Notes under the pieces: model-generated
Told to the model about the DNA's origin: nothing
Database searches by the model: none
What the model saw: the letters and a program-made list of their open reading frames with translations, nothing else
In this document: in pieces, positions 24,071 through 62,219 of the stretch
How positions within the stretch are numbered: position 1 is the stretch's first letter
How the letters are laid out: every line of letters begins with the position of its first letter
Assembly: GCA_947450325.1 (NCBI GenBank)
Contig: CANFUT010000009.1
Coordinates: 1 to 64,000 of the forward strand
From: Flavobacteriia bacterium
Lineage (GTDB): Bacteria; Bacteroidota; Bacteroidia; Flavobacteriales_D; Crocinitomicaceae
Direction of reading: 5' to 3'
DNA length: 64,000 bases
Made by a program: the position numbers and the translations under genes

Positions 24071-25336
24071 TCAATAACCAAGTGAAGCAAGTGAAATCAC
24101 ATTGATTCCATCATTTCGTTTGTAACTAATACCAGTACCTGTGATTACATTCAACGAAATCAATTTTGATCTGCTTGAGTCACTCAATACATTAGCAAAT
24201 TTGAGTAGGTTTTTAGCAGCTTCTTCAATTTGACCAGTTCCTAGTTTAATTTCAAAAGCACAGCATTCACCAGTATATTTTTGAACGATTGCATCCACCT
24301 CTAATCCGCTGGAATCATAATAATGATAAACTTTTGCGTCATTCGCTTGTGCATATACCCTTAGGTCGTGCACGACCATCGATTCAAATAGAAAGCCTGT
24401 AAATTTTAAATCATTCAATAATGCCTCTTTTCCAAGTCCAAGGGCTGCAACAGCGAGCGAAACATCTGAAAAGTGACGTTTTGAAGACTTCCGTAAAGTT
24501 GCGGATGAACGAATGTGCGTACTCCAAACTGGTTGATCTTCAACAATCATCAAACGTCCCAAAACTTCTAAGTAATCGTATATGGTAGGACGTGAAACAT
24601 CACTGTTTTCGTTTAATTTCATGTCTTTTTCTAATACGGTAATATCTGCTGTAGTTGCAGTATTTCTAGCAAGCGTGCGTAAAAGACTTCGAACTTTTGC
24701 TGGATTTCTTTTTATTTCAGATACACGACTCATATCCACTTCTGTCAGTAGATCTATGTAGGCCCGATTTATTTCGAGTGCCTGCGAAATACTCTTCTTT
24801 AGCAATGCAGGAAAACCACCTTTCATGATGCGCAGTACAATTGTTTCGATATCTGTGGGAGCATCATTGGTTGTTTGATCTTTGCCCTCAAGTAAACGAC
24901 CTAAACTTATTTCTCCAGAAGAATATCCCAACTCCTGCCAGCTCATGGTGCGCATATCTAATACCGTAAATCTGCCAGCACCCGAGTGAATTTTTACATC
25001 TTCAGCGGGATTAGCAGAGCCCGTTAAAATAAATTGAGCGACGTCATTGCGCTCATCCACTTCATGGCGGACATAATTCCATATTTTAGGAAATTCTTGC
25101 CACTCGTCAATCAAGCGTGGAACAGCGCCGATTAGTATGCGTTGAGGTGCGGTTTCCATCAACAATTTTATTTGTTCATCTTGATCAAAAGAAACGACAC
25201 TTGATGCAACTTGTTTTGCCGATTTCGTTTTACCACAAGCTTTCATTCCTCTTATCAATAATGCTCCAGAGGCGTCTAGTTTTTTGCGCATTTCAATATC
25301 TGAAATACGTTCTGTGTAGTCTGCTGCTTTTGCCAT
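24071..25336 (-). CDS. AAA_14/DUF4143 ATPase with PD-(D/E)XK-like domain
   Basis: The 421-residue protein belongs to the AAA_14 plus DUF4143 family. Walker A is GMKACGKT (30-37), Walker B is RLIDEWQE (Asp77/Glu78), and the sensor region is FILTGSANP. Then come a winged-helix-like region (SDVSRPTIYDYLEVLGRLMI) and a C-terminal part with EVDAIV...FEIKLG at about 343-363, the spacing of a PD-(D/E)XK nuclease fold. Whether it cuts DNA is unknown. The family is abundant in Bacteroidota and archaea and is usually an orphan gene. The gene reads away from a 12-unit, 23-bp array with a TATATTTG box between, suggesting that the array controls it or is its target. Confidence 0.85.
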   Translation of the reverse strand: MAKAADYTERISDIEMRKKLDASGALLIRGMKACGKTKSAKQVASSVVSFDQDEQIKLLMETAPQRILIGAVPRLIDEWQEFPKIWNYVRHEVDERNDVAQFILTGSANPAEDVKIHSGAGRFTVLDMRTMSWQELGYSSGEISLGRLLEGKDQTTNDAPTDIETIVLRIMKGGFPALLKKSISQALEINRAYIDLLTEVDMSRVSEIKRNPAKVRSLLRTLARNTATTADITVLEKDMKLNENSDVSRPTIYDYLEVLGRLMIVEDQPVWSTHIRSSATLRKSSKRHFSDVSLAVAALGLGKEALLNDLKFTGFLFESMVVHDLRVYAQANDAKVYHYYDSSGLEVDAIVQKYTGECCAFEIKLGTGQIEEAAKNLLKFANVLSDSSRSKLISLNVITGTGISYKRNDGINVISLASLGY

Positions 25337-25349
25337 TTTGAATCAGTTT

Positions 25350-25648
25350 ATTTTGATACAAATATAAGCTTATTTTACATATTAAAGCTAGTTTATTTTA
25401 CATATTATATGGTTTTCATTTTACATATTGTAAATCAATTACTTTACATATTGTAAACTATTCGTTTTACATATTAAAGTGGTTTTATTTTACATATTAT
25501 AAGTGTTTTACTTTACATATTGTAAGCTTTTTACTTTGCAAATTGTAAGCTTTTTACTTTACATATTGTAAGATTTTTACTTTACATATTATAAGCTTTT
25601 TACTTTGCGTATTGTAGGTGTTTTACTTTACATATTGTGAGGTTGCTC
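25350..25648. repeat. Tandem array, 12 units of exactly 23 bp
   Basis: Twelve units with exact 23-bp period fill 25373-25648; a degenerate thirteenth copy at 25350-25372 contains the ATPase promoter. Unit consensus on the plus strand is YTTTACATATTGTAAG plus a 7-nt T-rich tail, usually ending TTTTA. Most units contain the dyad TTACA-TAT-TGTAA; some have TTAAA or TTATA in the right arm. The period never changes, though the bases drift, so spacing rather than exact sequence seems conserved. A 23-bp period is close to two helical turns, so dyads lie on nearly the same face of the DNA. No spacer sequences of CRISPR length are present. Units 7, 9 and 10 are nearly identical. Confidence 0.95.
25359..25366 (-). 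promoter_or_regulatory. -7 element of the AAA_14 gene
   Basis: TATATTTG on the minus strand is a full match to TAnnTTTG, 22 bases upstream of the ATG at 25336. The position expected for the -33 element falls inside unit 1 of the array, and no -33 consensus is seen there, so repeat-bound protein could either block or replace normal sigma contact. Confidence 0.55.
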
Positions 25649-25774: not shown

Positions 25775-25825
25775 ATTATAATCCGCCAAAACTCAATAAA
25801 AAACATAGTTTTGGCGGATTATAAT
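25775..25825. repeat. Perfect 19-bp inverted repeat, possible terminator
   Basis: ATTATAATCCGCCAAAACT (25775-25793) and its exact complement (25807-25825) enclose a 13-nt loop. On the plus strand the next ten bases include TGATTTTTTT, so it could end plus-strand transcripts; on the minus strand, where the gene at 25903 ends, no T tract follows. The remaining 25700-25774 shows nothing. Confidence 0.7.
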
Positions 25826-33368: not shown

Positions 33369-34520
33369 CTAAATTTCAATCGTATTATTCCAGCTGACAA
33401 TCATCTCATTACTCCTTGTTTCGCTGAAATCTTGTGTGTTCAACAAGTAATGTTTGAACTGAAGTGTTTTATCAAACGAATCAATGTAATGCAATGATTT
33501 GATATACTCACTTTTAACGGTTTGCGAAGCTTTCATTTCAATGCATTGAATTTTCAATCCTCTTTCGATAATCAAATCAATTTCATTTCCATTGCTGTCT
33601 CTCCAGAAATAATAATTTTTGATTTCGCCATTGTTTTTGTGGTTTTTGATAATATCTACCAGTGCATAATTTTCAAAAATTGCGCCTTTGTAATTGGAAA
33701 TAATCAATTCTTTTTCATCTTCAATTCCAAGAAGATAGCAAACTAATCCTGTATCATAAAAATACAGTTTAGGAGATTTTACGATGCGTTTAGAAAAATT
33801 CTTATGCCAAGGTTTGAGTGTGAAAGCAATGTAACTCGTTTCTAAAATAGACAACCAGCGTTGCACCGTTTTGATGTCAATTCCCAAATCTTTTGAAATG
33901 GTATTCGCATTGAAAATCTGCCCAACGTGATGCGCGCAAATGTTGATGAATTTTCGGAAAGTCGATAAGTCATGCACATTAACCATGCTTCGAACATCTC
34001 TTTCGATGTAGGTCTGAATATAAGATGGATAAAAATCATTCGGCGCAATTTCTTTGTCGAACGTTCGCGGATATCCGCCTTGAATGATTGATTCAAAGAT
34101 ATTGAGTTGCTTGACAGTTTTTATTTCTGCATGGCTGAGAGGCAACAATTCAAGGATGTAAACCCTTCCCGCCAAACTTTGAGTTACTTTTTCTAACATC
34201 AAAAAGTTCTGTGACCCACTCAAAATATATTGTCCAGTTTTTCCTGATTCATCAACGATTTGTTGGATATATGAAAATAATTCAGGCGCATTTTGTGCTT
34301 CATCGATAATTACTTTGTCATCATAAGTTTCTAAAAATCCTTTCGGATCTGTTTGCGCAAAATAAAGCATATCAGGATTTTCCATGGAAACATACCGATA
34401 GTCTGAAAATACCAACTTACTCAAAGTTGTTTTCCCAGATTGTCTCGGTCCTGTGAAGACCAAAACTGGAAATTTTTGAGCCATTTTCAATATTTTCTGA
34501 TATGCCAATCGTTGAATCAT
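33369..34520 (-). CDS. AAA_14/DUF4143 ATPase with PD-(D/E)XK-like domain, second copy
   Basis: This 383-residue protein is of the same family as the gene at 24071 but clearly diverged. Walker A is GPRQSGKT (24-31), Walker B is KVIIDEAQ (Asp73/Glu74), the sensor is YILSGSQNF, a winged-helix-like region is ISKDLGIDIKTVQRWLSILE, and the C-terminal part has NEIDLII...IQCIEMKAS with the nuclease-like E-x-K. The start is the ATG at 34518-34520; the upstream ATG at 34538 lies before the -7 box. An array of four 22-bp units begins 8 bases behind this box. It is divergent from htpG. Confidence 0.85.
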   Translation of the reverse strand: MIQRLAYQKILKMAQKFPVLVFTGPRQSGKTTLSKLVFSDYRYVSMENPDMLYFAQTDPKGFLETYDDKVIIDEAQNAPELFSYIQQIVDESGKTGQYILSGSQNFLMLEKVTQSLAGRVYILELLPLSHAEIKTVKQLNIFESIIQGGYPRTFDKEIAPNDFYPSYIQTYIERDVRSMVNVHDLSTFRKFINICAHHVGQIFNANTISKDLGIDIKTVQRWLSILETSYIAFTLKPWHKNFSKRIVKSPKLYFYDTGLVCYLLGIEDEKELIISNYKGAIFENYALVDIIKNHKNNGEIKNYYFWRDSNGNEIDLIIERGLKIQCIEMKASQTVKSEYIKSLHYIDSFDKTLQFKHYLLNTQDFSETRSNEMIVSWNNTIEI

Positions 34521-34524
34521 AAAC

Positions 34525-34532
34525 CAAAAATA
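34525..34532 (-). promoter_or_regulatory. -7 element of the second AAA_14 gene
   Basis: TATTTTTG on the minus strand is a full TAnnTTTG match ending 4 bases before the ATG at 34520, so the transcript is probably leaderless. As for the other AAA_14 gene, the -33 position falls inside the repeat array. Confidence 0.55.
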
Positions 34533-34540
34533 ATACATTT

Positions 34541-34628
34541 TATGTAATTATGGAATATTTTTTATGTAAATATGGAATTTTGTTTATGTAATATTGGAAT
34601 TTAATCTATGTAAATATGGAATTTTTTA
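34541..34628. repeat. Tandem array, 4 units of exactly 22 bp
   Basis: Units begin at 34541, 34563, 34585 and 34607, an exact 22-bp period. The plus-strand consensus is TATGTAAATATGGAATTTTG plus two variable bases, and the second half of each unit is T-rich. It lies immediately behind the promoter of the second AAA_14 gene, as does the array behind the first, but its sequence and period differ. Both share the core TATGTAA. It lies in the divergent gap to htpG. Confidence 0.92.
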
Positions 34629-61922: not shown

Positions 61923-62156
61923 TTTCCAATACTTTAGATTTTACGACAAAACAGTCAATCTTATTTGGAAATCAAATGTCACTTAAAGATTCGTTTCGCT
62001 ACAAAATATTAAGATTTTAAAAGCCGTAGCTATGTAACTTTAAAACTAGATTATCACGCTTGCTGGGCAGCTTCAGGACAAATGAAAATCCTTAAGAAAA
62101 TCAGAAGTCTTAAAATCCTAATATCTTAGTATCTTGGAATCTATCAAGTTTATTGC

Positions 62157-62219
62157 CTCAAGTCTTCTGTCTAATGTCTTAAGTCTATTGTCTCAAGTCT
62201 TTCGTCTAGAGTCTTCTAC
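62157..62219. repeat. Heptanucleotide tandem repeat, 9 units
   Basis: Nine 7-bp units in exact phase: CTCAAGT, CTTCTGT, CTAATGT, CTTAAGT, CTATTGT, CTCAAGT, CTTTCGT, CTAGAGT and CTTCTAC (consensus CTnnnGT). Upstream at 62107-62156 looser copies (GTCTTAA, ATCCTAA, TATCTTA) continue the pattern. The last unit overlaps the stop codon of the ABC transporter gene. Related to the tract at 16498. Confidence 0.8.

What the first reader, a model, noticed from the sequence alone, without database searches (positions are those of the whole stretch)
34541..34628. Second, different array (4 units, exact 22 bp) behind the second AAA_14/DUF4143 gene
The second gene of the same family, about 9 kb away, also has an exactly periodic array immediately behind its -7 promoter element. 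The unit differs in sequence and length (22 against 23), so the arrays are not copies of each other. Independent arrays at two diverged members argue for a linked function.
Basis: partly seen in the sequence, partly recalled or inferred. Interest (0 to 1): 0.75.

Follow-up and report, generated by a model that had tools for sequence, protein, structure and literature searches.

The report
Private operator arrays of mobile ATPase-nuclease genes
A common but poorly understood bacterial gene, often listed as a candidate virus-defence gene, tends to carry its own private set of repeated DNA sites just in front of its start, and gene and sites appear to travel together, which gives a direct handle for finding out what the gene does.

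Summary
The array is real: four 22-bp units on the minus strand (cores at 34541, 34563, 34585, 34607), the last core ending 8 bp before a -7 box and close to the likely ATG (34520). None of 1000 shuffles reached its score. Among 200 family genomes the 22-bp pattern occurs in 18 of 19 that list an orthologue at 61-100% identity and in 2 of the other 181, where it stands without such a gene; 394 further phylum genomes have none. Of 218 non-identical AAA_14/DUF4143 genes (PDC-S01 type), 145 have a tandem array or inverted pair within 110 bp upstream, against 11 of 206 other ORFs and 0 of 218 shuffles. In the clearest pair of near-identical genes in different contexts, shared DNA runs only from the array to 3 bp past the stop. 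Long flanking direct duplications surround 27 of 208 genes, against 4 of 250 controls. The modelled protein joins a STAND-like ATPase, a winged helix and a PD-(D/E)XK nuclease-like domain. Best reading: a cognate, probably self-bound operator in a one-gene mobile cassette. Self-binding is inferred, and an indirect test of it failed.

The parts
34538..34627 (-). tandem array, 4 units, period exactly 22 bp
   Evidence: TRF; shuffle test
34541..34555 (-). unit core nearest the gene, TTCCATAATTACATA
   Evidence: exact match; exact matches in the genome occur only in this array
34563..34577 (-). unit core TTCCATATTTACATA
34585..34599 (-). unit core TTCCAATATTACATA
   Evidence: one mismatch
34607..34621 (-). 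unit core TTCCATATTTACATA, farthest from the gene
34525..34532 (-). -7-like promoter box TATTTTTG (TAnnTTTG; consensus recalled)
   Evidence: sequence; a TAnnTTTG follows the array in 52 of 75 array genes against 91 of 1500 shuffled tails
33369..34520 (-). AAA_14/DUF4143 gene (P0001 without its first six residues), 383 aa
   Evidence: Pfam AAA_14 7.1e-27, DUF4143 5e-50; PADLOC PDC-S01 1e-102; start from in-frame TGA in homologues
34026..34520 (-). ATPase domain, about residues 1-165 (G29-K30 and D73-E74 invariant)
33756..33968 (-). winged-helix region, about residues 185-255
   Evidence: AF2 secondary structure; weak profile matches to RacA (E 0.024) and BigR (E 0.8) chains
33438..33698 (-). 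PD-(D/E)XK nuclease-like region, about residues 275-361; E283, D315, E328, K330 invariant
   Evidence: invariant columns of A1 and A2; secondary structure order; Foldseek
25370..25638 (-). sister array of the second family gene, 23 bp, 11.7 copies
   Evidence: exact unit matches in the genome occur only here
25359..25366 (-). -7-like box TATATTTG of the sister gene
   Evidence: sequence
24071..25336 (-). sister AAA_14/DUF4143 gene P0002, 421 aa

Best explanation
The array is a cluster of binding sites, read most likely by the protein of the gene behind it, in which a winged helix sits between a STAND-like ATPase and a PD-(D/E)XK nuclease-like domain. The last unit ends a few bases before the -7 box and the start codon, so occupancy should affect RNA polymerase: the array works as an operator by which the protein sets its own dose. 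Repeats two or three helical turns apart put the sites on nearly the same face of the DNA, which would allow cooperative loading of an oligomeric ATPase. Gene and operator form one self-contained cassette that moves between genomes, so the protein arrives with its control site. Shown by computation: the array, its privacy to the gene, co-occurrence with orthologues, position at a promoter-like box, cassette borders in the clearest pairs, flanking duplications, domain make-up by model. Inferred: self-binding, autoregulation and its direction, cooperativity. Unknown: what the ATPase-nuclease acts on.
For: Array tied to the gene: 18 of 19 genomes that list an orthologue at 61-100% identity against 2 of 181 others, reversed-pattern control 0; none in 394 other phylum genomes. 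Exact unit matches genome-wide only in the array, for both window genes. Family rule: 145 of 218 genes with array or inverted pair within 110 bp upstream, against 11 of 206 other ORFs, 42 of 216 downstream stretches and 0 of 218 shuffles. De novo motif AATTnnnaATTTgcA in 95 upstream regions below 60% protein identity: log-likelihood 205 against 78.8 downstream and 86.9 shuffled. Motif similarity exceeds that of the adjacent flank at 40-50% (6.86 v 6.09), 50-65% (9.67 v 6.20) and 65-85% protein identity (16.70 v 6.95). A -7-like box follows in 52 of 75 array genes, 91 of 1500 shuffled tails. Winged helix and conserved PD-(D/E)XK residues. Cassette borders and flanking duplications.
Against: No binding data exist. 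Motif similarity does not follow the winged-helix part better than other domains (partial rho -0.002 winged helix, 0.041 ATPase, 0.095 nuclease). Below 40% protein identity the units are no more alike than their flanks. 64 of 218 genes have no site within 200 bp at my thresholds; the single motif model passes in 57 of 218 (other ORFs 1 of 206). Of named non-Bacteroidota loci 14 of 30 have a site. Of five plasmid members at about 30% identity 1 passes, and neither Thermus locus shows a clear site. Motif copies downstream of some genes and solo arrays are not explained by a promoter operator alone.
Confidence: 0.6

Rival explanations
1. The arrays and dyads are ends or landing sites of a one-gene mobile element: the ATPase-nuclease binds them to excise, insert or home, and any effect on the promoter is secondary.
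For: 9 of the 18 orthologue genomes with arrays have them on both sides of the gene, in the same orientation; palindromes on both sides of other members, e.g. L085, L086, L061, L073, L133; two solo three-unit arrays without a P0001- or P0002-like gene; cassette borders in the clearest pairs; flanking direct duplications in 27 of 208 genes against 4 of 250 controls.
Against: Sites are much commoner upstream (145 of 218) than downstream (42 of 216, some of which may be terminators), and the window gene has none downstream. The flanking duplications are host sequence of variable length, unlike fixed-length target-site duplications, and need no site-specific recombinase. No occupied/empty pair for the solo arrays was found among the loci compared. 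The site's place at the -7 box fits regulation better.
Confidence: 0.2
2. A separate host DNA-binding protein reads the arrays; the ATPase gene is only a regulated client.
For: The winged-helix part does not predict the motif better than other domains.
Against: The units of both window genes are private to one gene in the genome and differ between paralogues of that genome. The cassette occurs in several genera, so each would need a matching regulator, and in the clearest pairs the shared DNA ends at or within 80 bp of the stop codon, leaving no room for a regulator gene.
Confidence: 0.1
3. The repeats are self-marks for the nuclease: high-affinity sites that store, titrate or bait the enzyme, within a defence function.
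For: PDC-S01 models match; the nuclease-like residues are conserved.
Against: The sites sit at a promoter-like box rather than anywhere; unit number changes quickly (TRF copies 11.7, 8.5 and 10.6 at 98-99% protein identity).
Confidence: 0.07
4. Chance periodicity of AT-rich DNA, or neutral slippage.
For: AT-rich region; copy number changes quickly between close relatives.
Against: 0 of 1000 shuffles; phase kept at 61-100% identity while linkers change; 0 matches for the reversed pattern in 200 genomes.
Confidence: 0.02

Closest known systems
PDC-S01 (PADLOC phage-defence candidate; AAA_14 + DUF4143; the label COG1373 is recalled)
   Same: Both window proteins match the PDC-S01 models. [quoted passage not shown]
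   Different: No cognate array, inverted pair, cassette border or flanking duplication is mentioned in the passages I read of the two PDC-S01 papers.
Restriction-modification genes inserted with long target duplications (Nobusato et al. 2000, seen only as reference 15 of PMC3031569)
   Same: Nuclease genes flanked by long, variable direct duplications of host sequence (PMC3031569, passages read; here).
   Different: One gene, no methyltransferase; many members carry an array or dyad at their own promoter.
STAND regulators that read direct repeats at promoters, such as MalT (recalled; 8bob_C, an entry titled 'Structural basis for negative regulation of the maltose system', is among the Foldseek hits)
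   Same: STAND-like ATPase with a DNA-binding part; repeated sites upstream of a promoter.
   Different: Winged helix plus nuclease-like domain; array units found at one place in the genome, its own gene.
Archaeal ATPases 2qen and 2fna (STAND-type label recalled)
   Same: Best structural neighbours over residues 1-265, Z 16.0 and 15.3, rmsd 3.1 over 242 residues.
   Different: Aligned over the ATPase and winged-helix part only; upstream sites not looked at.
Iterons and solo LTRs (both recalled)
   Same: Tandem protein-binding repeats of about 22 bp; solitary repeats left without the gene.
   Different: No sign here of a replication or reverse-transcription role (not tested); the repeats sit at a promoter-like box.

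Membership tests
AAA_14 (PF13173) / DUF4143 (PF13635) | both Pfam domains above the curated cut-off | tested here: met
   94.4 and 169.8 bits for P0001, 44.7 and 120.7 for P0002, cut-offs 27 and 28.1
PDC-S01 (PADLOC) | match to PDC-S01 profile models | tested here: met
   best E 1e-102 for P0001 and 1.6e-60 for P0002
PDC-S01 (PADLOC) | protects against phage | not testable with these tools
   no experiment; [quoted passage not shown]
PD-(D/E)XK nuclease superfamily | core helix-strand order with E...D...ExK residues | tested here: met
   order H278-295, E302-308, E313-320, E323-329, H337-348, E354-361 in the AF2 model; E283, D315, E328, K330 invariant in A1 and A2; Can2 chains are top Foldseek hits at E 2e-6 but with TM about 0.2 and rmsd about 22
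PD-(D/E)XK nuclease superfamily | nuclease activity | not testable with these tools
   -
STAND NTPases | NTPase plus winged-helix fold closest to STAND-type proteins | tested here: met
   2qen Z 16.0, 2fna Z 15.3; plant NLRs and CED-4 follow; that these are STAND proteins is recalled, STAND motifs were not tested
Autoregulator with cognate operator | site at the gene's own promoter and private to it | tested here: met
   for the two window genes and P0001 orthologues
Autoregulator with cognate operator | protein binds the site | not testable with these tools
   an indirect test, motif against winged-helix similarity, gave no support
Transposon | same terminal sequences at both ends of the unit | tested here: inconclusive
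   both sides in 9 of 18 orthologue genomes with arrays; upstream only at the window gene
Transposon | fixed-length target-site duplication | tested here: not met
   flanking duplications of 27-229 bp at 73-100% identity
R-M-like insertion with long target duplication | long variable direct duplication of host DNA around the gene | tested here: met
   for the family: 27 of 208 genes (L101 among them is self-motif) against 4 of 250 other ORFs. Not for the window genes: none at P0001, one 37-bp match of 81% at P0002
CRISPR-like array | repeats separated by unique spacers of repeat-like length | tested here: not met
   7-bp linkers between 15-bp cores; cas genes were not searched for

The most novel reading that the evidence does not exclude
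PDC-S01 genes are not primarily defence genes but a vast class of one-gene mobile elements. A STAND-like ATPase with a nuclease domain recognises its own array or dyad, uses it both as promoter switch and as end or landing site, and leaves solo arrays behind when lost. Changes of the site (inverted pair, 22/23-bp array, 32-bp array, either orientation) keep sister elements from cross-talk within a genome.
Probability: 0.2. Interest if true: 0.92.

Novelty: new variant of a known kind. Interest (0 to 1): 0.78.

Why it matters
PDC-S01 is reported as the fourth most common defence entry across all prokaryotes, in a class of candidates for most of which validation is pending (PMC12988326, passages). 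A private DNA site in front of many members gives each such protein a candidate DNA ligand and a promoter to test, and a way to pair site and protein across dozens of natural variants. If self-binding holds, these genes are self-controlled, horizontally moving cassettes, which changes how defence censuses should count them. The solo arrays and two-sided arrays make it testable whether an ATPase-nuclease moves its own gene.

Tried and rejected
Chance or AT-richness: rejected. Neutral repeat: unit numbers do change (TRF copies 11.7, 8.5, 10.6 in L040-L042; 4.1 in L010 and 9.2 in L012), but cores stay while linkers drift, so neutral slippage alone does not fit. CRISPR-like array: linkers of 7 bp. 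Porphyromonas 22-bp repeats in the literature: one paper checked by passages, nothing relevant. Winged helix as specificity determinant by covariation: no support. Gene remnant beside the solo arrays: no tblastn hit of P0001 or P0002 better than E 0.25 (more distant family members were not searched for). Same locus occupied in a relative of the solo arrays: not found among the loci compared. Papers: DUF4143 in 1 paper, COG1373 in 7, PF13635/PF13173/PDC-S01 in 4; one search returned none; some searches were seen as listings. I read passages of five papers and one section of one of them; all others were seen only as listings. Most subscription papers are not in the library. A first search with 'AAA_14' returned noise. 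VIA-align barely tested the part after residue 301.

Limits of the census: loci are matches of searches, not random genes; the list of matches was cut at its weak end, and the 60 regions were picked by me from that list. L006-L009 (other ATPases) were dropped by the family profile; 167 family ORFs in 155 loci became 140 genes after removing near-copies, partial ORFs and those with under 150 bp upstream; 78 of the 80 named loci were added. The 218 genes contain relatives. The 95 motif representatives were picked with preference for members that have a site (70 of 95 do). Thresholds were set on shuffles and downstream stretches. Of the 27 flanking duplications, L139 and L140 are near-copies, and L082, L127 and L183 lie in loci that also gave control hits.

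Full report
What is there. On the minus strand four units with core TTCCATAWTTACATA start every 22 bp (cores at 34541, 34563, 34585, 34607). The last core ends 8 bp before TATTTTTG (34525-34532), which fits the -7 consensus TAnnTTTG (recalled), and four bases later comes ATG 34520. This start is better than ATG 34538: seven homologues carry an in-frame TGA just upstream of the corresponding ATG (L015-L021). So operator, -7 box and start codon are packed with little or no leader (inference). The lag-22 score is 30.3; 1000 dinucleotide shuffles reach at most 13.5.

The gene. P0001 has AAA_14 and DUF4143 and matches PADLOC's PDC-S01, as does the sister gene P0002. AlphaFold2 gives mean pLDDT 93.2 and pTM 0.91. 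The first 265 residues align best with the archaeal ATPases 2qen and 2fna (Z 16.0 and 15.3, rmsd 3.1 over 242 residues). Helices within 185-228 and strand 232-235 look like a winged helix, with weak matches of the family profile to RacA (E 0.024) and BigR (E 0.8) there. The C-terminal third has the PD-(D/E)XK order, with E283, D315, E328 and K330 invariant in both alignments. The best Foldseek hits are chains of the nuclease Can2, with low TM-scores of about 0.2. The sequence search of solved structures gave 14 weak hits and no full-length relative.

The array belongs to the gene. Exact matches to the core occur in the genome only in this array (three, plus the fourth unit at one mismatch); nine other one-mismatch places compare with five for the reversed control. 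For the sister gene, seven exact matches all lie in its array; 11 other one-mismatch places compare with 8 controls. Searching 200 genomes of the same family for two units at 22-bp spacing gave 52 matches in 20 genomes and none for the reversed pattern. In 18 of these 20 the matches adjoin a P0001 orthologue. Of 19 genomes that list an orthologue at 61-100% identity, only G157 lacks the pattern, and there the upstream side lies beyond the contig end (contig of 3000 bases). Two genomes, G105 and G126, have a perfect three-unit array with no P0001- or P0002-like gene in the 4.2 and 6.3 kb read. In 395 genomes across the phylum only the window's own genome matched. All 17 loci with upstream sequence at 61-100% identity (L010-L026, the window gene included) keep the 22-bp phase with two to nine units, 16 by TRF and L016 by pattern. 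The three next loci, at 55-56%, do not keep this unit: L028 and L029 have no TRF array beside the gene, L030 has a 22-bp array of another unit. The P0002 clade keeps a different unit and a 23-bp phase: 9 of 11 loci at 58-100% by TRF, L045 and L046 by eye. A three-unit search for that array in 100 genomes matched 4, three at P0002 genes and one, G040, elsewhere. TRF copy numbers are 11.7, 8.5 and 10.6 at 98-99% protein identity.

A family-wide rule. In 140 unique family genes, 50 pass the strict direct-repeat threshold and 16 the inverted-repeat threshold; periods of the 50 are 22 (18), 23 (15), 32 (14), 33 (1) and 38 (2); 10 of 137 downstream stretches and 0 of 280 shuffles pass either. With 78 named loci added there are 218 non-identical genes. 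Within 110 bp upstream 68 have an array and 77 an inverted pair; downstream the figures are 11 and 31 of 216, for other ORFs in the same loci 6 and 5 of 206, for shuffles 0 of 218. Within 200 bp, among the named loci, 29 of 39 Bacteroidota, 14 of 30 from other phyla and 3 of 9 unassigned have a site. Named examples are Belliella pelovolcani (dyad), Dyadobacter sp. SG02 and Leaf189 and Mucilaginibacter psychrotolerans (22-bp arrays), Algoriphagus sp. AK58 and Flavivirga sp. 57AJ16 (dyads). A motif finder given the upstream regions of 95 representatives below 60% identity, told nothing of arrays, returned AATTnnnaATTTgcA with log-likelihood 205, against 78.8 downstream and 86.9 shuffled; the representatives were chosen with preference for members with a site. 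Scanned back, that motif passes in 57 of 218 upstream regions, 14 of 216 downstream, 1 of 206 other ORFs and 7 of 654 shuffles. Arrays of 32/33 bp usually contain a dyad while 22/23-bp units are single half-sites: an inverted score of 10 or more in 20 of 23 and 4 of 40 rows (counted). Orientation and period follow the protein tree: 61 changes against 117.7 for shuffled labels (FastTree, long branches flagged). That the inverted pair is older and that tandem arrays arose more than once is inference from this tree and the wide spread of pairs.

Constraint. Motif similarity rises with protein identity from 40% up, while 40 bp beside it stays near background until 85%; below 40% motif and flank do not differ (Mantel 1 of 500 permutations as high). 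Against my reading, the winged-helix part is not the best predictor of the motif, and 64 of 218 genes show no site within 200 bp at these thresholds. Of 11 plasmid loci read, 4 score above 10 as inverted pairs (L261 Runella rosea, L262 and L263 Moraxella bovis, L274 Phaeobacter), L264 Allochromatium is at 10, two Runella sp. SP2 pairs are visible but below threshold, Agrobacterium and Rhizobium show only weak 22-bp periodicity (score 9; the Rhizobium start was guessed), and the two Thermus loci show no clear site.

Position. In 52 of 75 array genes TAnnTTTG follows the array, most often starting 2-8 bp from its end; shuffled tails give 91 of 1500. This argues for promoter control.

Mobility. 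In the clearest pairs in different contexts, shared DNA is confined to site plus gene: L047/L048, 98% DNA identity, from -125 to 3 bp past the stop; L044/L045, 98%, from -116 to 80 bp past. More diverged pairs agree: L093/L094 (89%) -93 to +2, L135/L137 (86%) -64 to +4. Other close pairs share long flanks, so they sit at the same locus (L003/L011, L139/L140). In 27 of 208 family genes sequence upstream of the site is directly repeated after the gene (27-229 bp, 73-100% identity; L101 is self-motif, L139 and L140 are near-copies), against 4 of 250 other ORFs, three of which lie in loci that also gave family hits. One is in the window's own genome (L001, 134 bp, 81%). At the window's two genes no clear duplication was found: none at P0001, one 37-bp match of 81% at P0002. 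This is the pattern reported for restriction-modification genes, which insert with long and variable target duplications (PMC3031569, passages). Nine of the 18 orthologue genomes have arrays on both sides of the gene in the same orientation, and palindromes flank other members. Solo arrays could be scars of gene loss between such direct arrays, or landing sites; I cannot tell which. In G040 a P0002-type array stands before a different ATPase gene, weakly similar to P0001 (E 4e-5), with a dyad of its own seen by eye, as if one member had replaced another.

Reading. The parsimonious account is a self-bound operator in a one-gene mobile cassette (0.6). The bolder account is a mobile element whose ATPase-nuclease uses the same sites as ends (0.2). 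The first needs one binding assay. In Thermus thermophilus HB27 one AAA_14/DUF4143 gene (TT_P0211) rose 6.6-fold with plasmid DNA only when Argonaute was present (PMC4406477, section 7 read), a hint that a family member responds to such conditions.

Known or new. PDC-S01 as an ATPase plus PD-(D/E)XK protein is in print (PMC12988326, passages), and its abundance too (PMC13356809, passages). I saw no account of its private arrays or dyads in searches, which cover open-licence papers only and were mostly seen as listings. I call it a new variant of a known kind: autoregulated mobile genes are known (recalled), this architecture for this family is not among what I could find.

Noticed in passing
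window 25370-25638: Sister 23-bp array of P0002; three congeners at 98-99% protein identity have TRF copy numbers 11.7, 8.5 and 10.6.
   Followed up: yes
L250 2949-3006 and L251 3296-3353: Solo three-unit 22-bp arrays in apparently intergenic DNA with no P0001- or P0002-like gene nearby.
   Followed up: partly
L269, read on its minus strand, about 2660-2810: P0002-type array before a different ATPase gene that has its own dyad next to a -7-like box.
   Followed up: partly
L001 (window's own genome, G000:C39): Family gene with an inverted repeat upstream and a 134-bp flanking direct duplication at 81% identity.
   Followed up: partly
L167 (Pedobacter petrophilus): 84-bp direct duplication at 97.6% starting right after the stop codon, perhaps a recent insertion, in a named isolate.
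   Followed up: no
window about 25775-25820: Hairpin AATCCGCCAAAACT...AGTTTTGGCGGATT upstream of the P0002 array, perhaps a terminator.
   Followed up: no
window 62146-62215: Another tandem repeat with overlapping periods 14, 21 and 35.
   Followed up: no
L262, L263: Two Moraxella bovis plasmids carry family members with a long inverted repeat directly before the start.
   Followed up: no
T. thermophilus HB27 TT_P0211 (PMC4406477, section 7): An AAA_14/DUF4143 gene rises 6.6-fold with plasmid DNA only if Argonaute is present.
   Followed up: no
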